From: Mesorhizobium loti
GTDB taxonomy: Bacteria; Pseudomonadota; Alphaproteobacteria; Rhizobiales; Rhizobiaceae
Assembly (NCBI RefSeq): GCF_013170705.1
Contig: NZ_CP033334.1
Location: 744,001-808,000, forward strand
Reading direction: 5' to 3'
Length of the DNA stretch: 64,000 nucleotides
Positions 7,724 to 20,988 of this stretch are shown here, in pieces. Made by a program: the position numbers and the translations under genes. Position 1 is the stretch's first letter; the number at the start of each line of letters is the position of its first letter. The notes under the pieces were generated by a model that worked only from the letters and a program-made list of their open reading frames with translations, was not told where the DNA came from and made no database searches.

Positions 7724-9211
7724 ATGAGCGAAGCCAGCCAAGCAGGGGAAGGGATCGGCACGGCGCCAGCCGCCGTCCGCACGGTGCCCCTGTCACGCGG
7801 CCTGTCGACGAAACTGCTGCTGTTGACCATCGTTTTCGTGCTTTTGGCTGAAGTGCTCATCTTCCTGCCCTGGATCGCCAGCTACCGGCTGAGCTGGCTC
7901 AAGGAGCGGCTGAGCACGGCCGCCGCCGTGTCGATCGTGCTGGTGCAGGGCGAGTCCACCTCATTGTCGCGCACGGCCCAGAACGACGTGCTGATGGCGA
8001 TCGGCGCCAAGGCGATCGCGGTGCGCGACGGCGGCGTCTCGCGGCTTCTGGTGGTGGCGGACATGCCGCCGCAGGTCGACGAGCACATCGACCTCGCCAG
8101 CGTCGGCATGATCAAGGGCATGACCGGCGCGCTCGACACGCTGTTCTTCGGCGGCGACCGGATGCTGCGCGTCTTCGGACCGGTCGGCGACAGCGACAAG
8201 GAGTTCGAGCTGATCATGCCGGACTACTCGCTACGCAAGGCGATGCTCATCTATTCGCGCAACGTCGCCTTCGTCTCGCTGCTGATCTCGCTGTTCACCG
8301 CCATGCTGGTCTATGCCGCGATCGACCTGATCATGATCGGGCCGATCCGTACCATGACGCGCTCGATGCTGTCCTTTTCCGAGGCCCCGGACGATCCCGG
8401 GCGCATCATCCATCCCGCCGCCCGCGCCGACGAGATCGGCGTTGCCGAACGCGAGCTGTCGCAGATGCAGGAGCGGCTGCAAAAGATGCTCTCCGAGCAG
8501 AAGCACCTTGCCGACCTCGGCCTGGCGGTCTCGAAGATCAACCACGACATGCGCAACATCCTGGCCTCGGCACAGCTGATGTCGGACCGCCTGCGCCAGG
8601 TCAGGGATCCGACCGTACAAGCCTTCGCGCCGAAGCTGCTGCGCGCGCTCGACCGGGCCGTCTCCTATTCGGAAGGCGTGCTTCACTATGGCCGCACGCA
8701 GGAGCCGCCGCCTTCGCGCCGCAGGGTGCGGCTGCGCCAGCTGGTGGAGGACGTGCACGGCCTGCTCGACATCGAGGAGGGCATCGAGTTCATCAACGCG
8801 GTCGAGGCGGCTTTCGAGGTGGATGCCGATTCCGACCAGCTGTTCCGGGTGCTCACCAATCTGTGCCGCAACTCCGTGCAGGCGATGGCGGCGGACACTG
8901 AGAGCGCGTTGGTGCGGCGGCTCGCGGTCTCGGCAGAACGCATGGGCAGTGTCAGCCGCATCGCCGTCACCGATACGGGTCCCGGCCTGCCGCCGAAGGC
9001 GCGCGAGAACCTGTTCGCGGCGTTCCGCGGCTCGGCGCGCAGCGGCGGCACCGGTCTTGGCCTGGCGATAGCGCACGAACTGATCCGTGCCCATGGCGGC
9101 ACGGTGGAACTGGTCGAATCGATTGGCGGGCGCACCACTTTCGCCGTCACCATCCCCGACCAACCGGTGCGGCTCGACCAGGCGCGCGGCAGCCTGCGCC
9201 GTCCGGCGTGA
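7724..9211 (+). CDS. Orphan membrane sensor histidine kinase
   Basis: 495 residues. First membrane segment near residues 30-52 (LLLLTIVFVLLAEVLIFLPWI), a periplasmic sensor part of about 130 residues, a second segment near 188-212, then a HAMP-like linker. The phosphoacceptor region reads LAVSKINHDMRNILASAQLMS (His near 274). The ATPase domain shows the N box (NLCRNSVQAM), G1 (DTGPGLPP) and G2 (GGTGLGLAIAHEL). It autophosphorylates and hands phosphate to a response regulator, but no regulator gene is adjacent, so it is an orphan kinase. The signal it senses is unknown. It is divergent from rpmH. Confidence 0.9.
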   Translation: MSEASQAGEGIGTAPAAVRTVPLSRGLSTKLLLLTIVFVLLAEVLIFLPWIASYRLSWLKERLSTAAAVSIVLVQGESTSLSRTAQNDVLMAIGAKAIAVRDGGVSRLLVVADMPPQVDEHIDLASVGMIKGMTGALDTLFFGGDRMLRVFGPVGDSDKEFELIMPDYSLRKAMLIYSRNVAFVSLLISLFTAMLVYAAIDLIMIGPIRTMTRSMLSFSEAPDDPGRIIHPAARADEIGVAERELSQMQERLQKMLSEQKHLADLGLAVSKINHDMRNILASAQLMSDRLRQVRDPTVQAFAPKLLRALDRAVSYSEGVLHYGRTQEPPPSRRRVRLRQLVEDVHGLLDIEEGIEFINAVEAAFEVDADSDQLFRVLTNLCRNSVQAMAADTESALVRRLAVSAERMGSVSRIAVTDTGPGLPPKARENLFAAFRGSARSGGTGLGLAIAHELIRAHGGTVELVESIGGRTTFAVTIPDQPVRLDQARGSLRRPA

Positions 9212-10093: not shown

Positions 10094-11491
10094 TTATACC
10101 GTTGGCCGGATGTTCTGGTTCAGGCGGAAGAAATTGCTCGGATCGTATTTGTTCTTCAGCGCTACGAGCCGCGCATGGTTCTCGCCATAAGCCGCGCGGA
10201 CCCGATCCTCCCCTTCATCACCGAGATTGTTCGCGTAGACGCCGCCGGTCGAATAGGGGCTGATGGCGCTCCACAGCTCGCGAGCCCAACGGATATTGGC
10301 CTCGTCGTCCGCCGGGTCGTCCCAGATTGCGAGCGGGAAGCAGTCGTACTGTGCGTGGCGGTTGGCATAGGGAGAGGCGGATGGTGGGACACGGGCGATC
10401 GCGCCGCCAACCTGCTGGAACACCAACAGCGCGGAAGGCGAAGGGGCCTTGGGATAGATTTCCAGGAGCGCGTCGATCGCGCCGTCGCTGATTTCGCCGA
10501 GGAACTGCGCTTTCCAGTAATAGCGCCGCCCGCGCGGGAAAAGACTGTCGCCGGCGGACTGAATCTCAAGGTAAGGACGGATAGCGAGGTTGCTGTCGAT
10601 GGGCGAGCCGAACTTCATCAGCGGAGCGATGATGTCCTCGCCGGCTTCCGGACGGCCGGCATGGCAGGCCGAAATACTGAAGGCTCGTTCACCTGTCGGA
10701 AGGGAGACGAGGGCGGCGTCGACGCTGAGTTCATCGGGGGCTCTGCGGCAGAATTCGTGATAGAATTTCATCGCGCCACGAGCGTGATCGTAGCGGTGAA
10801 GGACCGAGCCGACCAGCAGACCAGGACCGACGGCGTGTAACTGATATTCGAACGCCGTAACGATGCCGAAATTGCCGCCTCCACCCCTCAGCCCCCAGAA
10901 CAGGTCGGGATTTTCCGAGGCGCTGGCGCGCACCATACGGCCATCGGCGGTCACCACGTCGGCGGCGATGAGATTGTCGCAGGTGAGGCCATATTTGCGG
11001 CCTAGCTTGCCGAAGCCGCCGCCCAGTGTCAGCCCGGCAATGCCGGTATCGCCATTGACGCCCATCGTCGTTGCCAGGCCGTGGGCCTGCGTCGCCGCAT
11101 CGAACTCGCCAAGGCTAAGGCCCGCCTCGGCCCGCACGACGCGGCGCACCGGGTCAACCTCGATTGCCTTCATGCGAGACAGGTCGATGACGATTCCGTC
11201 GTCGCAGACCGAGAGCCCCGCAACGTTGTGCCCGCCACTTCGAACGGCTACGGGATTGTTCGTTGTCCTGGCGAATGTCACCGTCTGGATGACGTCGTCG
11301 GCGTTGGCGCAATAGACGATCGCGGCTGGTCGTTTGTCGATCGCCCCGTTCCAGACCTTGCGGGCCTCGTCATATGTGCGGCCTCCCGGCAGGACCAACT
11401 CGCCGCTCAATTTGTGTCGAAGCCAATCGAGCGCCGACATGGCGGGACGGGATTTGCCCGAGACAGAGTCCGTCAGCCGCTTCTGGTCCAT
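10094..11491 (-). CDS. Berberine-bridge-type FAD-linked oxidoreductase
   Basis: 465 residues. The FAD-binding PCMH domain occupies the N-terminal half: VRSGGHNVAGLSVCDDGIVIDLS contains the His that carries 8-alpha-linked FAD in this family, followed by AGLTLGGGFGKLGRKYGLTCD. The BBE motif closes the protein (YDPSNFFRLNQNI). The second covalent-linkage Cys of plant BBE enzymes is not seen at the GGG segment, so a single covalent link is more likely. Family knowledge: these enzymes oxidise alcohols, sugars or alkaloid-like compounds with O2. The substrate is unknown. It is divergent from the LysR gene with a 108-bp shared promoter region, so it is probably that regulator's target. Confidence 0.88.
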   Translation of the reverse strand: MDQKRLTDSVSGKSRPAMSALDWLRHKLSGELVLPGGRTYDEARKVWNGAIDKRPAAIVYCANADDVIQTVTFARTTNNPVAVRSGGHNVAGLSVCDDGIVIDLSRMKAIEVDPVRRVVRAEAGLSLGEFDAATQAHGLATTMGVNGDTGIAGLTLGGGFGKLGRKYGLTCDNLIAADVVTADGRMVRASASENPDLFWGLRGGGGNFGIVTAFEYQLHAVGPGLLVGSVLHRYDHARGAMKFYHEFCRRAPDELSVDAALVSLPTGERAFSISACHAGRPEAGEDIIAPLMKFGSPIDSNLAIRPYLEIQSAGDSLFPRGRRYYWKAQFLGEISDGAIDALLEIYPKAPSPSALLVFQQVGGAIARVPPSASPYANRHAQYDCFPLAIWDDPADDEANIRWARELWSAISPYSTGGVYANNLGDEGEDRVRAAYGENHARLVALKNKYDPSNFFRLNQNIRPTV

Positions 11492-14237: not shown

Positions 14238-15158
14238 GTGTCGGAAAGTCGAAGCCAGGAAGCGTGGGAAGCGGCAGCCTTTGCGGAGGATTTCCGCGGA
14301 GGTGTCTTCGCCGCGCAGCAGCGGCTGCGTAACCGGCTCCTTGATCGCGGTGTAATCCGACGCGCACAGGCGCGCGATCTAGCCGCCCACATGCTCCTTC
14401 ATCTTGATGACCTTCCAGGCTGCTGGTTCATTGCCACAAACTGGCTGCGAGCCGAGCTTGGATGTCAGCGCGTTGACACCGGTTTTGGATTGCGTGAGGC
14501 TAGGGATTATTTCCCCGGCTTCGCGGAAGCGAAGGACGCGGACTACGACGTTCCCTCTTTCGGCGGTGGCGGGGCTGTCGATAATCGCGATCCTGCGATG
14601 CAGGCCATGTGGCTGGAGCCGCACCCATTGATCTTTGCCGATATCAAGCAGGACAGTCGCATCACGATGCGACTACGACAAAGGATGTCGGGGGCGAGGA
14701 CGAAATCAAAGTTCGCTTGGGCGCTTCGGACCGGACGCGGCAGCTACGGCCTGATTTGCGCTGACTGGACCGAGCACCTTGTTCCTTGGGAATCCGGTCT
14801 CCACGATTGCTTCGAACACACGGTGGTCGATGTCCTCAACCCGATCATCTCCGTTGCCAAGGAGATCGCCGATCACGACACGACGACCGGGAATGGGGAC
14901 GAGGTACGGCGGAGCTATCATTTGGCCTTGTCAGCGCGCCTTACGGGCACAGCGTCGCTGGCAACGCTGACACTATCCGAGATCGAGATCGCCAGACTGG
15001 TCGCAAAGGGCCTGAGCTACAAGGAAATAGCCAGAATTCGCCGCAGGTCTTTCTCCACGATCGATCATCAGCTCAGGAGTATACGGCGGAAAACCGGTGT
15101 CTCCAGCACATCCGCCCTGGTCAGCTTGCTCGCAAGGTCTGACTTCCCCTTGGCCTGA
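14238..15158 (+). CDS. LuxR-type helix-turn-helix regulator
   Basis: 306 residues from a GTG at 14238, preceded by GGAAGGGAAAAGG; the upstream ATG at 14175 has no such site. The C-terminal 60 residues form the LuxR/FixJ DNA-binding domain (LTLSEIEIARLVAKGLSYKEIA, then SFSTIDHQLRSIRRKTGVSS). The N-terminal 240 residues contain no receiver or autoinducer domain that I recognise; a GAF- or PAS-like sensor role is possible. It lies 239 bases upstream of and collinear with the GlcG-hydrolase-ABC operon, so it is its probable activator. The gene has lower codon bias than its core neighbours, in keeping with transfer. Confidence 0.8.
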   Translation: MSESRSQEAWEAAAFAEDFRGGVFAAQQRLRNRLLDRGVIRRAQARDLAAHMLLHLDDLPGCWFIATNWLRAELGCQRVDTGFGLREARDYFPGFAEAKDADYDVPSFGGGGAVDNRDPAMQAMWLEPHPLIFADIKQDSRITMRLRQRMSGARTKSKFAWALRTGRGSYGLICADWTEHLVPWESGLHDCFEHTVVDVLNPIISVAKEIADHDTTTGNGDEVRRSYHLALSARLTGTASLATLTLSEIEIARLVAKGLSYKEIARIRRRSFSTIDHQLRSIRRKTGVSSTSALVSLLARSDFPLA

Positions 15159-15246
15159 AGAACGGTCGGTGTCGCGTTGTAGGCATTCGCGTCCGCAAGC
15201 GGCGGAAAACGCCCTCAATAGGAATGCCCCGCATTCTCAGATTGTT

Positions 15247-15301
15247 GGATCGATAACGCGATCCCTCATCGATCCCAGTTCGCATCGCGAACCTTCGCGA
15301 T
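15247..15301. promoter_or_regulatory. Two inverted repeats upstream of the GlcG-ABC operon
   Basis: GGATCGAT (15247-15254) and ATCGATCC (15268-15275) form an 8-bp inverted repeat with a 13-base spacer. ATCGCGAACCTTCGCGAT (15284-15301) is a second perfect inverted repeat with a 2-base spacer. They sit about 100-150 bases before the GlcG start, where an activator or repressor would bind. The neighbouring LuxR-type protein is the obvious candidate. Confidence 0.5.
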
Positions 15302-15397
15302 AGATGGCGCCCGACGTCCTTTGGTAGATCCGTAAGGCACATGATCGTGCAACGCTGAATCACCTCTCACGGGTGATTTGCCGAGGGAGGAGACGCG

Positions 15398-15910
15398 ATG
15401 ACCAAACGATTGCTTGCGGCAGCAGCGCTAATGGCTTGCTTGCCGACGCTCGGCGTGGCCGAGGGTCTCGGCAGCAAATCCATACTTACCTATGATGCCG
15501 CCGAAAGGATGATCGCGGCCTGCTTCGCTGCTCAGGCCGCCGCCGGCTATCCCAAGGTCAACGTCGTCGTGGTCGACGACGGCGGGCGGCTGATTGCCGC
15601 CGCGCGACAGGATGGGGCCTGCAAGGCCTGCACCGACATCGCTCAGAACAAGGCGATCACCTCCTCCCTCTACGCAGCCCCCACCCGGGCGATGGCCGAT
15701 CTATCGTTCGGCGTGAAGCGCGACGGCGTGGACGCTGGCTTGCCAGGTGCGGCCTTTGTTCCCGGCCTCGTGGCCTTTGCCGGCGGTCTTCCAATCAAGA
15801 CCGTGGCCGGTGACGTCATCGGCGGGATCGGCGTCAGTGGCGCCAGCGAGGATGAGGACGAAGGCTGCGCGCAGGCGGCCGTCGATGCCGTTTCGAAAAG
15901 CCTGAACTGA
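15398..15910 (+). CDS. Secreted GlcG/HbpS-family heme-binding-type protein
   Basis: 170 residues with a signal peptide (MTKRLLAAAALMACLPTLGVA) and one GlcG/HbpS domain: LTYDAAERMIAACFAAQAA, VNVVVVDDGGRLIAAARQDGA, NKAITSSLYAAPT, GDVIGGIGVSGA. An excellent ribosome site GGGAGGAG precedes the ATG by 5 bases, and a small hairpin (AATCACC/GGTGATT, 15358-15378) lies upstream of it. Family knowledge: HbpS from Streptomyces binds heme outside the cell and serves redox sensing; most GlcG proteins have no known role. It is the first gene of the five-gene operon, 10 bases before the hydrolase. It may be a periplasmic substrate or cofactor partner of the importer. Confidence 0.85.
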   Translation: MTKRLLAAAALMACLPTLGVAEGLGSKSILTYDAAERMIAACFAAQAAAGYPKVNVVVVDDGGRLIAAARQDGACKACTDIAQNKAITSSLYAAPTRAMADLSFGVKRDGVDAGLPGAAFVPGLVAFAGGLPIKTVAGDVIGGIGVSGASEDEDEGCAQAAVDAVSKSLN

Positions 15911-15920
15911 GAGCGGCGCG

Positions 15921-16970
15921 ATGGTCGACAATCCGTTCTATGGTCCCGAAACGCAGGGCGACTACAAGCTTCACGATCTCGGCAACCTGATCCTTGAAAG
16001 CGGAGAAACGCTACGCGGCGCAAAGCTGGCCTACCGGACCTTCGGAACACCGAACGCCGAGAAGTCCAATGCCGTCCTGGTGACCACCTGGTTCTCCGGA
16101 ACCGGCAAGGTAATGCAGGACGTTTATGTTGGTCCGGACCATGCGCTTGATCCGAACCGGTACTTCATCGTCATCGTGGATCAACTCGGCAGCGGCGTCT
16201 CGTCTTCGCCGCAGAACACGCCCCCACCACAGGCGATGGCGAAGTTCCCGAAGCTCTGCATCGGCGACGATGTCCGCGCGCAGCATCGTATGCTGACAGA
16301 CCTGTTCGGCATCGAACGGCTGGCGCTCGTGGTCGGCGGGTCGATGGGCGGACAGCAGGTCTATGAATGGGCGGTCGTTCATCCGCGGATGGTTGAACGG
16401 GCGGCGCCGATCGCCGCAACCGCTCGCATTTCGCTGCATCAGCAGGTCTTTGTCGAAACGCTGAAGGAGGCGATCACGTCCGACCCGCGCTGGAACAGCG
16501 GCTGGTATGCCTCGGGCCTTGTCGTGCGCGAGGGTATGGACCGAATGGCGCGGATCGTGGCGACACTCGGCCGGTCCACGCAGTTCTACCAAGAGGAGCG
16601 GTGGCGCAGCGTGGTCGGCATGTCGTCGCTGGATGATTTCATCAATGGCGTGATGAAGGCCTATTTCGAGCCGATGGACCCCAATGTCCTATTGTGTGAG
16701 ATGCACAAGTGGCAGCGGGCGGATGTGTCTCGACACGCGGGAGGTGATCTTGCCGCGGCGCTGGCTCGGGTCGAGGCAAGGACGATGGTCATGCCCATCA
16801 GTCATGACGGCTTCTTCCCGCCGCACGAATGCGAGGCCGACTGTCGCCTTGTACCGGGCGCGCTGTTCCGGGTGATCCAGTCGCCCGAGGGTCACATGGG
16901 CCTGAACGGGTTCGAGCCGGGATACATGGAACAGGTGGACCGCCATCTGAACGAGCTGCTCGCCGCCTGA
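15921..16970 (+). CDS. MetX-like alpha/beta hydrolase or acyltransferase
   Basis: 349 residues. It resembles the homoserine O-acetyltransferase branch of the alpha/beta hydrolase fold: KLAYRTFGTPN, ALDPNRYFIVIVDQLGSGVSSSP, the nucleophile elbow VVGGSMGGQQVYEWAV (Ser near 142), the acid region MVMPISHDGFFPPHE and the catalytic His in SPEGHMGLNGF. No signal peptide, so cytoplasmic. The usual metX partner (metW) is absent and the operon context is import, so I favour hydrolysis or acyl transfer on an imported compound over methionine synthesis. The exact reaction cannot be read from the sequence. Confidence 0.8.
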   Translation: MVDNPFYGPETQGDYKLHDLGNLILESGETLRGAKLAYRTFGTPNAEKSNAVLVTTWFSGTGKVMQDVYVGPDHALDPNRYFIVIVDQLGSGVSSSPQNTPPPQAMAKFPKLCIGDDVRAQHRMLTDLFGIERLALVVGGSMGGQQVYEWAVVHPRMVERAAPIAATARISLHQQVFVETLKEAITSDPRWNSGWYASGLVVREGMDRMARIVATLGRSTQFYQEERWRSVVGMSSLDDFINGVMKAYFEPMDPNVLLCEMHKWQRADVSRHAGGDLAAALARVEARTMVMPISHDGFFPPHECEADCRLVPGALFRVIQSPEGHMGLNGFEPGYMEQVDRHLNELLAA

Positions 16971-16995
16971 CGACACTGCAAACCGAGTTTGACCG

Positions 16996-17019
16996 CCCCT
17001 GAGCGCCATCGCTCGGGGG
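16996..17019. promoter_or_regulatory. Intercistronic hairpin before the ABC genes
   Basis: CCCCTGAGCG and CGCTCGGGGG pair over 10 bp (one G-T wobble) around a CCAT loop in the 96-bp gap between the hydrolase and the ATPase gene. No T-run follows, so it is more likely an mRNA processing or stability element than a terminator. Confidence 0.45.
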
Positions 17020-17066
17020 AACGGAGGGGCACGCCCCGATGACCGCGCCGGAGGACGCGCCAGAAG

Positions 17067-17864
17067 ATGCAACCTACTAAAGACAAGGTGCTGAACGTCA
17101 GAGGCGCCACCAAAACCTATATGACTCAGTCGGGCGACGTTCACGCCCTCAAGGACGTCGATCTGACGGTGCGGCCGGGCGAATTCATCTCGGTTGTTGG
17201 GCCATCCGGTTGCGGCAAGACCACGCTGCTCTGGTCAATCGCCGGGCTTCACAAGCTGACCTCGGGCGCGATCGCACTCGGCGAGGCATGGATTACGCGC
17301 CCGCATCCCAGCATCGGCATGATGTTTCAGGAAGCGAACCTCCTGCCCTGGCGGACCATTCGCCAGAATATCGAGCTGCCGTTCGAAATCCGGAGGCAAC
17401 GCCCGGATGCCGCGCGGATCGATACGTTCCTTGAGCGTGTCGGCCTCGGCGGCTTCGGCGACAAGATGCCCCGCGAATTGTCCGGCGGCATGCAGCAGCG
17501 TGCGTCCATCGTGCGCGCACTGGCGAGCGATCCGACGGTGCTCTTGATGGACGAACCGTTCGGAGCCCTCGACGCCTTCACGCGCGATGAGATGAACAAG
17601 CTGGTCGAGGAGATCTGGCTGGAATCCCGCAAGACGGTGATCCTGATCACCCACTCCATCGCCGAGGCGGTGTTCCTGGCCGACAAGGTCTACATCATGA
17701 GCGCGCGCCCGGGCCAGATCGCGCGAATGGTCGATATCCCGTTTCCGCGGCCAAGGTCGCTCGACCTCATGGAGACGCGCGAGTTCTTCGAACTCGTCAA
17801 CATGATCAAGCACGACATCAAGCACCAGCCGTCGGCGAAGCCTGCGGCCGCCATCGCGGGATGA
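17067..17864 (+). CDS. ABC importer ATPase, SsuB/TauB/ThiZ class
   Basis: 265 residues. Walker A GPSGCGKTTLLWSIAGL, Q-loop MMFQEANLLPWRTI, signature LSGGMQQRASIVRAL, Walker B VLLMDEPFGALDA and the H-loop LITHSIAEAVFLAD are all intact. It powers import by the permease and binding protein encoded next. The permease start lies close to its stop codon. This subfamily drives uptake of sulfonates, nitrate, cyanate, thiamin precursors (HMP) or similar small molecules; the ATPase does not reveal which. Confidence 0.92.
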   Translation: MQPTKDKVLNVRGATKTYMTQSGDVHALKDVDLTVRPGEFISVVGPSGCGKTTLLWSIAGLHKLTSGAIALGEAWITRPHPSIGMMFQEANLLPWRTIRQNIELPFEIRRQRPDAARIDTFLERVGLGGFGDKMPRELSGGMQQRASIVRALASDPTVLLMDEPFGALDAFTRDEMNKLVEEIWLESRKTVILITHSIAEAVFLADKVYIMSARPGQIARMVDIPFPRPRSLDLMETREFFELVNMIKHDIKHQPSAKPAAAIAG

Positions 17865-17875
17865 GGAGGTCCATC

Positions 17876-18691
17876 ATGAGCATAACGACCCAGACCGGTG
17901 CCGGCATCGTCGGCGCAACCGGAGTTGCCAGCGGGCTCGGTGGCCAGGGGGCCAAGGAAGTTGCCGCGATCGTCGCCGTGGCTTTACTCGTCATCGGCGG
18001 AAGCGAACTGCTGCTGCGTCTGTTTGAGGTCCCGCAATTCATCCTGCCCACCCCATCAGCCATCGCCAGCGTGTTCGCCTCGGCCGAAATGCCGACGATC
18101 GCGGAACACTATTCCTACACGCTGATCGAGCTCGTGACTGGCTATGCCATCGGCGCGTCGATCGGATTGGTGCTCGCGGCGGTCATCACGCAGTTCCCCT
18201 TCGTGGAAAAGGTAATCACGCCTTACATACTGTTGCTGGTGACCACGCCGATGCTGGCGCTGGTGCCGCTCTTGATCCTGAACTTCGGCTTTGGGTTCAC
18301 CCCGAGGATCATCGCCGTCGGGCTGGCGTCCGGTCCGATGGTGATGATCAACGCCGCCACAGGCTTCCGGCGTGTCGACGCTATGAAGATCGCGCTTGTG
18401 CGGTCTTGCGGCGCCTCGACACTGCAGATCTTCAGCAAGATACGCATTCCGATGGCCATGCCGATGGTGATCGTCGGCCTGATGATCGGGGCTATCTTCG
18501 GCATGATCACCGCCGTCGGCGCCGAGATGTCGGGCGGTGGATTCGGACTCGGCAGCCGCCTGACGACCTATTCCTCAACGCTTCGGATGCCGGAGTTCTT
18601 CGCGTGCATCCTGATCCTCGCAGTCACCGGGATCACGATCTACGCGTTCTTTTTCTGGCTCGGAAAGAGACTGGCCGGCTGGGAAAGCTGA
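17876..18691 (+). CDS. ABC importer permease, SsuC/ThiX class
   Basis: 271 residues from the ATG at 17876, chosen because GAGGAGG precedes it. An ATG at 17861 overlapping the ATPase stop would put that ribosome site inside the gene. About six membrane segments are visible, with the permease coupling loop near KIALVRSCGASTLQIFSKIRIPMAMP (EAA-type, binds the ATPase). It forms a homodimer in the inner membrane. It is followed after 73 bases by its binding protein. Confidence 0.9.
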   Translation: MSITTQTGAGIVGATGVASGLGGQGAKEVAAIVAVALLVIGGSELLLRLFEVPQFILPTPSAIASVFASAEMPTIAEHYSYTLIELVTGYAIGASIGLVLAAVITQFPFVEKVITPYILLLVTTPMLALVPLLILNFGFGFTPRIIAVGLASGPMVMINAATGFRRVDAMKIALVRSCGASTLQIFSKIRIPMAMPMVIVGLMIGAIFGMITAVGAEMSGGGFGLGSRLTTYSSTLRMPEFFACILILAVTGITIYAFFFWLGKRLAGWES

Positions 18692-18764
18692 CCGAGAGGG
18701 CGAAACGCCGCGTTCGACCTGTGCAATGCAATATCGCGGCCCAACCAATATGGGAGGAGACCCT

Positions 18765-19928
18765 ATGGCTCACCAAATGATGACTCGTCGGCGGCTGCTG
18801 CAAATCAGTGCCGGCGGCCTTGTGACCACCACCGTTCTGGGCGGCGGCGTGCTGACCTCGGGCACTGCCGAGGCCAAGCCCTACAATTCGCCCTTCACCT
18901 GGATTTCGCCGCGCGGCACGATCGAGGTGATGGACGACTACCCTTACTGGGTCGCCAAGGAGATGGGTTACTTCGGGGACCTCGGAGTGGATACGGACAT
19001 GGAGCCGGGCCCATCGGACGGGACCGCTGTGGTGAAGTTCCTGGCGGTGCAACAGGCCGACATCGGCTTCCCCTCGCCGGGCGTGCTTTCCTTTGCGGTG
19101 AATGCGGGCATGGACCTCGTCTCGGTCTTCGGTAGCGGCTTCCTCGATCTCTTTAATGTCGCTTTCCGCAAGGGCCAGGCGGTGAAGAATCTGAAAGAGC
19201 TGGAAGGCAAGACCGTGCTACTGGGATCCGCTGCCTGGCAGTCGATCTGCGACCCGATGTTCGCGGCCGTTGGCGTCGACCCAAAGAAGATCACCTATGT
19301 CGAGGCTGGCTGGCCGACCTGGACGACGGCGCTCGCCGGCGGTCAGGGTGACGCATGCCTCGCATGGGAAGGCCTGCGGGCCGATCTGGGCGCAAAGGGT
19401 CTGGACTTCGACTACTGGCTGGGCATGCGCGGCTCGCCCCTGCCCTCGAACTCGCTCGTGGTGCGGCGCGCCGATCTGGAGGATGCCGAGCGGCTGGAGT
19501 TCCTGAAGAAATATCTCAAGGGCTGGGCGATGGGCAGCGAGTTCGCCGACCGCAACCCACGCGCAGCGACTGCCATCGTGTTCAAGGCCCTGCCCACGAC
19601 CAAGGCCAATTATGGTCCCCGTGCGGGCACAGAAAGCCTGATGCAGATCCACCGCACCTTCAAGGGAGACATGACCAAGCGTGCAGGCTGGGGCGAGCAC
19701 AACATTCCGGCCTGGGACAATTTCTTCAAAATCCTCAAGACCATCGGCCAGTCGAGCATCGACATCGAAACCGCGCGCTACGTCACCAACGATTTCATCG
19801 CCGGCGCGAATGACTTCGACAAGGCGAAGGTGCATGCCGACGCCGATGCCTATGCGCTGCCCGAGGACCTTGCAGCGATCGATATGACCGACGTCGAGGC
19901 GAAGTTCTACAGCAACGTGATCAACTGA
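18765..19928 (+). CDS. NMT1/THI5-like periplasmic binding protein, probable Tat substrate
   Basis: 387 residues from the ATG at 18765, which has GGGAGGAGA in front. The N-terminus MTRRRLLQISAGGLVTTTVL is a twin-arginine-type signal, cleaved near TAEA. The body is NMT1/THI5-like: YPYWVAKEMGYFGDLGVD, DGTAVVKFLAVQQADIGFPSPG, LEGKTVLLGSAAW. Family knowledge: such proteins bind HMP, taurine, nitrate or aromatic sulfonates; the ligand is unknown here. Tat export is unusual for this class and suggests folding, possibly with a cofactor, in the cytoplasm before export. It is the last gene of the operon. Confidence 0.88.
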   Translation: MAHQMMTRRRLLQISAGGLVTTTVLGGGVLTSGTAEAKPYNSPFTWISPRGTIEVMDDYPYWVAKEMGYFGDLGVDTDMEPGPSDGTAVVKFLAVQQADIGFPSPGVLSFAVNAGMDLVSVFGSGFLDLFNVAFRKGQAVKNLKELEGKTVLLGSAAWQSICDPMFAAVGVDPKKITYVEAGWPTWTTALAGGQGDACLAWEGLRADLGAKGLDFDYWLGMRGSPLPSNSLVVRRADLEDAERLEFLKKYLKGWAMGSEFADRNPRAATAIVFKALPTTKANYGPRAGTESLMQIHRTFKGDMTKRAGWGEHNIPAWDNFFKILKTIGQSSIDIETARYVTNDFIAGANDFDKAKVHADADAYALPEDLAAIDMTDVEAKFYSNVIN

Positions 19929-20229: not shown

Positions 20230-20988
20230 ATGACCCTTCCCCGCATCAAACGCGCCTTGATCACCGGCGCCGGAGCCGTCGACGGCATCGGCTTCGCCAT
20301 TGCCCGCCAGCTTGGCAGCACCGGCAACGCCGTGTTCCTCACCGGCGCCAGCGCGCGTGTGCTTGAGCGCGCCACCGAACTTCGTGCCAAGGGCATCGAT
20401 GCCAGGGCCATGGTCGCCGATCTCACCAAGGCCGCCGATGTCGCGCGGCTGCGGGCAGGTGTCGGCGCCATCGACATACTGGTCAACAATGCCGGCATGG
20501 GCTCGCTGGCATCACCCTCGGCCGACAAGGCGTTTCTCGCCATGACCGAGGCCGATTGGGACCGAGGCATCGATGTCAGCCTGAAGACGGCGTTCTTGGT
20601 CACCCATGCGTTCCTGCCGGCGATGATCGAAGCGGGCTATGGGCGCATCGTCAATGTGGCGTCGGTCACCGGCCCGCTGGTGTCTTTCGAAGGTACCTCG
20701 GCCTATTCGGCCGCCAAGGCCGGCATGGTCGGCCTGACGCGCACGCTGGCACTCGAAGTGGCCAGGAGCGGCGTAACGGTGAATGCGGTGGCTCCCGGCT
20801 GGATCGAAACGGGCGCGTCGAGCGAGATGGAACGGACGGCGGCCTTGCATACGCCGCCGGCGCGGGCGGGCCGGCCGGATGAAGTGGCGGCGGCGGTCGT
20901 GTTCCTGGCTTCCGAAGGCGCCAGCTATGTCAACGGGGCTCTTTTGGTGGTCGACGGCGGCAACAGCCTCCAGGAACACAAGGGCTGA
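20230..20988 (+). CDS. Short-chain dehydrogenase/reductase (FabG-like)
   Basis: 252 residues from the ATG at 20230; the longer open frame upstream runs through gene debris. It has the classical SDR layout: cofactor loop ITGAGAVDGIGFAIA, NNAG motif (ILVNNAGMGS), catalytic Ser in VNVASVTGPLVSFEG, YxxxK as AYSAAKAG, and the C-terminal ending ASYVNGALLVVDGG. A tetrameric NAD(P)-dependent oxidoreductase of a carbonyl or alcohol is expected. The substrate is unknown and it has no operon partner on its strand. Confidence 0.92.
   Translation: MTLPRIKRALITGAGAVDGIGFAIARQLGSTGNAVFLTGASARVLERATELRAKGIDARAMVADLTKAADVARLRAGVGAIDILVNNAGMGSLASPSADKAFLAMTEADWDRGIDVSLKTAFLVTHAFLPAMIEAGYGRIVNVASVTGPLVSFEGTSAYSAAKAGMVGLTRTLALEVARSGVTVNAVAPGWIETGASSEMERTAALHTPPARAGRPDEVAAAVVFLASEGASYVNGALLVVDGGNSLQEHKG

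What the first reader, a model, noticed from the sequence alone, without database searches (positions are those of the whole stretch)
14238..19928. Unfamiliar import module: LuxR, GlcG/HbpS, MetX-like hydrolase, NMT1-type ABC importer
I know of no described system that combines a secreted GlcG/HbpS protein, a MetX-like alpha/beta hydrolase and an SsuABC/ThiXYZ-type importer. The single orientation, tight spacing, strong ribosome sites and dedicated regulator argue for one job: capture of a small molecule, import, then hydrolysis or acyl transfer in the cytoplasm. The GlcG protein may present or stabilise the ligand, or bind heme. The binding protein carries a twin-arginine-like signal.
Basis: inference. 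Interest (0 to 1): 0.75.

Follow-up and report, generated by a model that had tools for sequence, protein, structure and literature searches.

The report
Ester-uptake operon tied to dihydroxyacetone
A soil bacterium carries a small switchable gene cluster that seems to import an unknown small ester and cut it inside the cell; in most of the related loci found, a dihydroxyacetone kinase gene sits right beside it, which hints at what the ester contains.

Summary
In detail: LuxR-type regulator, HbpS-like protein with a signal peptide, MetX-fold hydrolase and a three-gene NMT1-type ABC importer lie co-oriented at 14238-19928. The set recurs in Rhizobiales, Rhodobacterales and one Burkholderiales genome. 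The five-gene picture needs three corrections. (1) HbpS is optional: intact in 4 of 9 loci where the LuxR-hydrolase interval is readable, a remnant in a fifth. (2) The hydrolase belongs with PRK07581/MekB-type esterases, not MetX. (3) The missing partner is an ATP-type dihydroxyacetone kinase (DhaK-DhaL), beside the module in 10 of 12 loci and in 0 of 72 loci of the nearest paralogous importer family. The window itself lacks it; its genome has one elsewhere. I also found a palindrome, ATCGCGAA-NN-TTCGCGAT, at 15284-15301: exact in 7 of 9 loci, one mismatch in an eighth, absent from the ninth, one exact copy in the 6.87-Mb genome. Best reading: a dedicated activator switches on import of an acyl ester of dihydroxyacetone or a similar small ketose; the esterase frees the ketose, the kinase traps it. 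The ligand is inferred, not shown. The few paper searches made found no description of this gene set.

The parts
14238..15158 (+). LuxR-type regulator, probably the activator: C-terminal GerE HTH; N-terminal ~240 aa without Pfam match (GAF-like by eye only)
   Evidence: homologue in 9 of 9 readable loci, in L037 divergent and 42% alike
15284..15301 (.). Palindrome ATCGCGAA-CC-TTCGCGAT, proposed operator
   Evidence: exact in 7 of 9 loci, one mismatch in L032, no match within 3 mismatches in L037; one exact copy in the whole genome
15325..15330 (+). -10-like box TAGATC, 23 nt after the palindrome. In the 8 loci with the palindrome a TA starts 22 or 23 nt behind it; T at the sixth place in 7 of 8, not in the window
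   Evidence: counted by hand; inference. The sigma-70 scan does not list it
15398..15910 (+). HbpS/GlcG-like (PF03928) protein with a signal peptide read by eye; optional member
   Evidence: intact in W, L036, L039, L152; C-terminal remnant in L033
15921..16970 (+). Esterase-type alpha/beta hydrolase (PRK07581; MekB-like), GGSMGG nucleophile motif
17067..17864 (+). ABC importer ATPase
17861..18691 (+). ABC importer permease
18765..19928 (+). NMT1/THI5-like substrate-binding protein with twin-arginine-type signal

Best explanation
A dedicated LuxR-type regulator binds one palindromic site in front of the operon and, when its signal is present, turns on a high-affinity importer for a small acyl ester. 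A Tat-exported NMT1-type binding protein hands the ester to the ABC permease; the MekB-like esterase hydrolyses it in the cytoplasm; the freed hydroxyketone (dihydroxyacetone or a close ketose such as erythrulose) is phosphorylated by an ATP-dependent DhaKL kinase, encoded beside the module in most relatives and in trans here. The HbpS-like protein, where kept, is an accessory that may bind or buffer a reactive carbonyl in the periplasm. Shown: gene linkage, kinase linkage in relatives, conserved palindrome, protein families and kept sequence motifs. Inferred: that LuxR binds the palindrome and activates, the ester substrate, the identity of the ketose, use of the kinase in trans, role of HbpS.
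For: DhaKL beside the module in 10 of 12 loci (behind the binding protein in 8, in front of LuxR in 2) and in 0 of 72 loci of the ~60% paralogous importer family, read with flanks of up to about 8 kb, some shorter. Base rate by my arithmetic: 4 Dak1 genes in 6.87 Mb make about a 1% chance per 16-kb stretch. The kinase matches Citrobacter DHA kinase 1un9 (E 1.2e-147); its three substrate-site motifs are kept in 7 of 7 fused module copies checked, and in slightly changed form in the split copy of L037 and the trans copies of G000 and G1278. Similar DhaKL genes (about 66% to that of L032) end LacI-SBP-permease-permease-ATPase-ATPase clusters in 3 of 4 plasmid regions opened. Both genomes whose module lacks the kinase (G000; G1278, the genome of L040) have a fused DhaKL elsewhere, 52-57% alike. 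Hydrolase relatives 5e4y, 5d6o; its 48.6-53% plasmid homologues directly follow an NAD(P)/FAD-dependent oxidoreductase gene in 3 of 4 regions opened, as in ketone monooxygenase-esterase pairs (recalled). Divergence: hydrolase-DhaKL r=0.95, LuxR-DhaKL r=0.91, ATPase-DhaKL r=0.89 over 21 pairs. Palindrome.
Against: No DhaKL in the window itself. Measured from the aligned start, DhaKL stands 125-170 bp behind the binding-protein gene in 8 loci (86 bp by the annotated start in L116), so it may have its own promoter. Divergence of binding protein and permease tracks DhaKL poorly (r=0.47 each), and the distant L037 drives much of the high values. The kinase tree is mostly unresolved. G1249 (genome of L032) has an adjacent DhaKL and also a second, 39% alike fused kinase elsewhere, so trans copies are not a clean substitute pattern. 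DhaKL genes are common in rhizobia. Dha kinases accept other ketoses (recalled). The closest solved binding proteins by profile are 4nmy and FAMP-binding 3ix1, which point to heterocycles. No natural source of such an ester is known to me.
Confidence: 0.45

Rival explanations
1. Same logic, but the kinase substrate is a C4-C5 ketose or another hydroxyketone and the imported compound is not a simple ester (for example a lactone or ketose conjugate).
For: Dha-type kinases for erythrulose are recalled from the literature; the motifs kept only require a small hydroxyketone (recalled mechanism).
Against: Kinase is closest to Citrobacter DHA kinase; hydrolase relatives are esterases (recall).
Confidence: 0.25
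2. Ketone or aromatic-ester catabolism in the MekA-MekB manner; the DHA kinase link is a by-product of sharing a catabolic island.
For: 50-53% hydrolase homologues directly follow an NAD(P)/FAD-dependent oxidoreductase gene in Methylibium and two Rhodococcus plasmids; the paralogous importer cluster carries a monooxygenase-like gene (by eye). A berberine-bridge-type FAD oxidase gene lies at 10094-11491 (-), 2.7 kb before LuxR.
Against: That oxidase is another family than the ketone monooxygenases; the kinase is found on either side of the module in different loci. Monooxygenase genes around the 12 loci were not searched for systematically.
Confidence: 0.12
3. Vitamin-precursor (HMP/thiamin-like) uptake with hydrolytic salvage.
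For: Profile hits of the binding protein are 4nmy (thiamin-bound by recall), FAMP-binding ThiY 3ix1 and, weakly, THI5.
Against: No thi gene among the neighbours that were annotated or Pfam-scanned, but none was searched for systematically; a DHA kinase has no known place in HMP salvage; NMT1 is a broad family.
Confidence: 0.08
4. HbpS-centred heme or redox sensing with a borrowed importer.
For: HbpS-like domain with a signal peptide. A histidine-kinase-type ATPase domain gene stands at 7724-9211, 6.2 kb before HbpS with several genes between.
Against: HbpS is not intact in 5 of 9 readable loci that keep the rest.
Confidence: 0.03

Closest known systems
MekB / acetyl esterases of the homoserine transacetylase family (PDB 5e4y, 5d6o; these names recalled)
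   Same: Full-length match, E about 1e-105, shared GGSMG nucleophile region and C-terminal His region
   Different: Sits with an importer and, in relatives, a DHA kinase rather than behind a monooxygenase
ATP-dependent dihydroxyacetone kinase of Citrobacter freundii (1un9; organism recalled)
   Same: Dak1+Dak2 fused, substrate-site motifs kept
   Different: Encoded beside an esterase-ABC module in relatives; not in the window
SsuABC / TauABC / nitrate importers; ThiXYZ
   Same: NMT1 binding protein, one permease, one ATPase
   Different: Every NCBIfam cut-off shown was missed (for the ATPase the best 25 of 188 were shown); ThiXYZ not tested beyond the PDB profile hits; other partner genes
EfgA, HbpS, NahX, and 2a2l (Klebsiella OrfY by recall), PF03928
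   Same: Fold family; EfgA residues K57, S114, D121 kept by hand reading of the alignment (residues from a passage of PMC8153426)
   Different: Signal peptide by eye, while EfgA is cytoplasmic (passage); heme binding untested

Membership tests
PRK07581 hydrolases | Curated NF005757 cut-off 332 bits | tested here: met
   436.8 bits
MetX homoserine O-acetyltransferase | TIGR01392 cut-off 500 bits | tested here: not met
   177.3 bits
HbpS-like (PF03928) | Gathering score 25 bits | tested here: met
   97.4 bits
HbpS-like (PF03928) | Heme binding or degradation | not testable with these tools
   needs purified protein
EfgA formaldehyde sensor | Pocket residues K57, S114, D121 | tested here: met
   hand reading, numbering set by the evolved sites named; the paper calls these residues largely conserved in DUF336 homologues, so this does not single out EfgA
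EfgA formaldehyde sensor | Cytoplasmic location | tested here: inconclusive
   signal peptide read by eye; no predictor run
SsuABC/TauABC/nitrate importers | NCBIfam cut-offs | tested here: not met
   taurine ATPase 211.5 vs 357, nitrate ATPase 211.6 vs 291.8, SsuC permease 61.6 vs 347, TauC 53.1 vs 342, SsuA family 44.5 vs 163.5 bits
NMT1/THI5-like binding proteins (PF09084) | Gathering score 20.5 bits | tested here: met
   67.6 bits
LuxR-family regulators (PF00196) | Gathering score 23.5 bits | tested here: met
   24.2 bits, narrowly
Acyl-homoserine-lactone LuxR receptors | Autoinducer-binding domain | tested here: not met
   no such family among the 9 listed for 30 members at E 0.1
ATP-dependent DHA kinase (partner gene in relatives) | Dak1 and Dak2 over cut-off | tested here: met
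   4 of 4 fused module copies scanned (L032, L033, L039, L116) and the G000 trans copy
ATP-dependent DHA kinase (partner gene in relatives) | Substrate-site motifs GGGSGHEPAH, K[NS]YTGD, GIHGE | tested here: met
   7 of 7 fused module copies checked. Trans copies of G000 and G1278 read GGGAGHEPSH, L037 reads GGGSGHEPLH and YSGD; the histidines are kept
ATP-dependent DHA kinase (partner gene in relatives) | Gene adjacent in the window | tested here: not met
   copy in trans at G000:C1:231896

The most novel reading that the evidence does not exclude
An undescribed, horizontally moving catabolic unit for a natural acylated ketose (an acyl-dihydroxyacetone-type ester) that no one has looked for in soil and sea water, with its own LuxR-type sensor and operator and with a periplasmic DUF336 protein acting as a carbonyl binder or guard.
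Probability: 0.3. Interest if true: 0.65.

Novelty: new variant of a known kind. Interest (0 to 1): 0.5.

Why it matters
It turns a list of genes into a testable pathway with a specific kinase end point and a specific candidate operator. If right, it reveals a small ester or ketose conjugate that is common enough for some rhizobia and marine bacteria to keep a dedicated uptake route, and gives a clean reporter (the operator) for finding it.

Tried and rejected
Rejected: MetX identity; HbpS as a core part; the SDR at 20233-20988 as a member (at 45% identity or more only in W and L040 of 12 loci; in L040 it lies about 2.2 kb away with two predicted genes between); a wider regulon for the palindrome (in the own genome only one further site, with one mismatch, in a region with glycosyltransferase- and methyltransferase-like genes by eye). 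The phylum-wide search for the hydrolase at E<=1e-100 gave 3 of 398 genomes, the own one and two at 53% and 47%; the neighbourhoods of those two were fetched but not analysed. The kinase tree (12 rows) is mostly unresolved; the five downstream copies form one side of a branch at 77/100 support, so single versus repeated recruitment is open. Of 15 reading frames searched for remnants of HbpS, one in L033 stood out; the others in L032, L040, L116 and L037 were not better than shuffles, and a second frame of L033 reached 4 of 200. Paper searches: aimed at the gene combination or the kinase in these hosts; at single parts. Listings only were seen (15 of 55 for, 10 of 24), plus passages of three papers. 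Fold search and ligand-pocket comparison were not possible because structure prediction is off.
Full report
What is there. The window (G000:C1:744001-808000, 6.87-Mb genome) lies in a Mesorhizobium-like genome (inferred from the labels of named relatives). Six co-oriented genes at 14238-19928 match the finding. The hydrolase meets the PRK07581 model (436.8 vs 332 bits) and misses the MetX model; best solved relatives are 5e4y and 5d6o. The depositors label them homoserine O-acetyltransferase; that they are acetyl esterases, 5e4y being MekB, is recalled. The HbpS-like protein matches NahX, EfgA, HbpS and 2a2l; 2a2l is Klebsiella OrfY by recall, and the EfgA paper used Klebsiella OrfY, a DUF336 protein, as its search model (passage).

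Does it travel as a unit? I counted loci whose binding protein is at least 75% identical to the window's or that have a hydrolase at least 60% identical beside a related importer. Those are 12 distinct loci, the window included: W, L032, L033, L034 (same contig as L121, L151), L035, L036, L037, L038, L039, L040, L116 (Sagittula plasmid) and L152. One search kept 80 of 152 confirmed stretches, so the list is not complete. Nine show the region from LuxR to the importer, and 9 of 9 have LuxR, hydrolase, ATPase, permease and binding protein (in L037 LuxR is divergent and 42% alike). L034 has neither LuxR nor hydrolase and only a piece of the ATPase, with other genes upstream; L035 and L038 are cut by contig ends. 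HbpS is intact in 4 of the 9 (W, L036, L039, L152), and a 33-residue C-terminal remnant stands in L033 (score 72, shuffle maximum 43, 0 of 200 as high; one of 15 frames tried). The module is an accessory: hydrolase at E<=1e-120 in 3 of 146 genomes of the genus, own one included (by coordinates the other two are the genomes of L032 and L040); binding protein at 83% or more in 3 of 394 family genomes, own one included; in the class sample, apart from the own genome, only 58-62% relatives in 3 of 385.

The missing partner. A fused DhaK-DhaL kinase gene, or a split pair in L037, lies beside the module in 10 of 12 loci: behind the binding protein in L032, L033, L034 (cut by the contig end), L035, L037, L038 (in two reading frames), L039, L116; in front of LuxR in L036 and L152. 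L036 and L152 share flanking genes, so they are probably one event. Among 72 loci of the paralogous ~60% importer family (L031, L041-L111, flanks up to about 8 kb, some short), 0 have a kinase hit or a hydrolase hit; 67 of 72 carry a Gfo/Idh-type gene, named by eye, usually behind the binding protein. With 4 Dak1 genes in the 6.87-Mb own genome, a 16-kb stretch would hold one in about 1% of cases (my arithmetic). The kinase is closest to Citrobacter DHA kinase 1un9 and keeps its substrate-site motifs in 7 of 7 fused copies checked. The window and L040 lack it. Both genomes have a fused DhaKL elsewhere, 52-57% alike (G000, L115/L162; G1278, L178), with GGGAGHEPSH in place of GGGSGHEPAH; in G000 it follows an SBP-permease-ATPase-ATPase set. 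G1249, the genome of L032, has its adjacent copy and one further, 39% alike fused kinase. A related Bradyrhizobium cluster, blr3566-3577, is described as ABC plus PTS-type DHA kinase genes (passages of PMC5017801).

Palindrome. The interval in front of the first structural gene holds ATCGCGAA-NN-TTCGCGAT exactly in 7 of 9 loci and with one mismatch in L032; the ninth, L037 with its divergent LuxR, has no match within 3 mismatches. In the own genome there is one exact copy, plus one site with one mismatch in an unrelated region. In the window it is the only match at up to 2 mismatches, chance mean 0.05. In the 8 loci with the site a TA starts 22 (L039, L116) or 23 nt (the other six) behind it, with T at the sixth place in 7 of 8 (counted by hand). 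That would put the palindrome near -44, where LuxR-type activators often work (recalled). The automatic promoter scan does not list this box. That LuxR binds it and activates HbpS-hydrolase-importer is inference.

Mechanism and limits. Put together: import of a small ester, hydrolysis, and kinase trapping of the hydroxyketone product. The ester nature rests on the hydrolase family and the ketose on the kinase; neither the ligand nor any activity was tested. Divergence of hydrolase and kinase goes in parallel (r=0.95, 21 pairs), but that of binding protein and permease against kinase much less (r=0.47 each), and L037 weighs heavily. The binding protein may have been exchanged, or specificity may differ between loci. 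The nearest solved binding proteins by profile are 4nmy and 3ix1, which keeps a heterocyclic ligand possible. The EfgA residues S114, D121, K57 (passage) are kept in this HbpS, which allows, but does not show, carbonyl binding; the paper calls them largely conserved in the family.

Novelty. Four paper searches aimed at the combination or at the kinase in these hosts listed no description of this gene set; five more on single parts did not either. Lists were capped and the library lacks most subscription papers. ABC importer plus hydrolase plus kinase is a known kind of catabolic operon; this combination and its palindrome appear new as far as these searches go.

Changes made on checking: the operator count is now given over nine loci, the hydrolase-homologue range is 48.6-53%, two genes near the window that bear on rivals (FAD oxidase, histidine-kinase-type) are named, the G1249 comparison is weakened, and the EfgA location test is inconclusive.

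Noticed in passing
G000:C1:1051306-1052427 (L031): A 60% paralogue of the binding protein in the same genome lies in a different conserved cluster (by eye Gfo/Idh-type, amidase-like, monooxygenase-like with an extra N-terminal domain, RpiR-like and amidohydrolase-like genes), parts of which recur in many of 72 loci; its ligand is also unknown.
   Followed up: partly
L036:11748-12048: Three pieces matching the DhaL part of the kinase downstream of the module: a decayed second kinase copy.
   Followed up: no
L039: Contig is labelled Acidimicrobiales MAG but carries a module otherwise found in proteobacteria, at 47.8% G+C against 62-67% in seven other module loci; possibly mis-binned.
   Followed up: no
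window:20233-20988: SDR gene behind the importer; its 87% homologue in L040 is about 2.2 kb away from the module. Both loci that lack an adjacent kinase have it.
   Followed up: partly
window:9590-9666: tRNA-Arg gene about 4.6 kb upstream of a module that is rare in the genus; the region may be a variable island.
   Followed up: no
window:21585-28091: GntR/FCD regulator gene divergent from an SBP-ATPase-permease importer, followed by a gamma-glutamyltranspeptidase gene: a separate uptake cluster.
   Followed up: no
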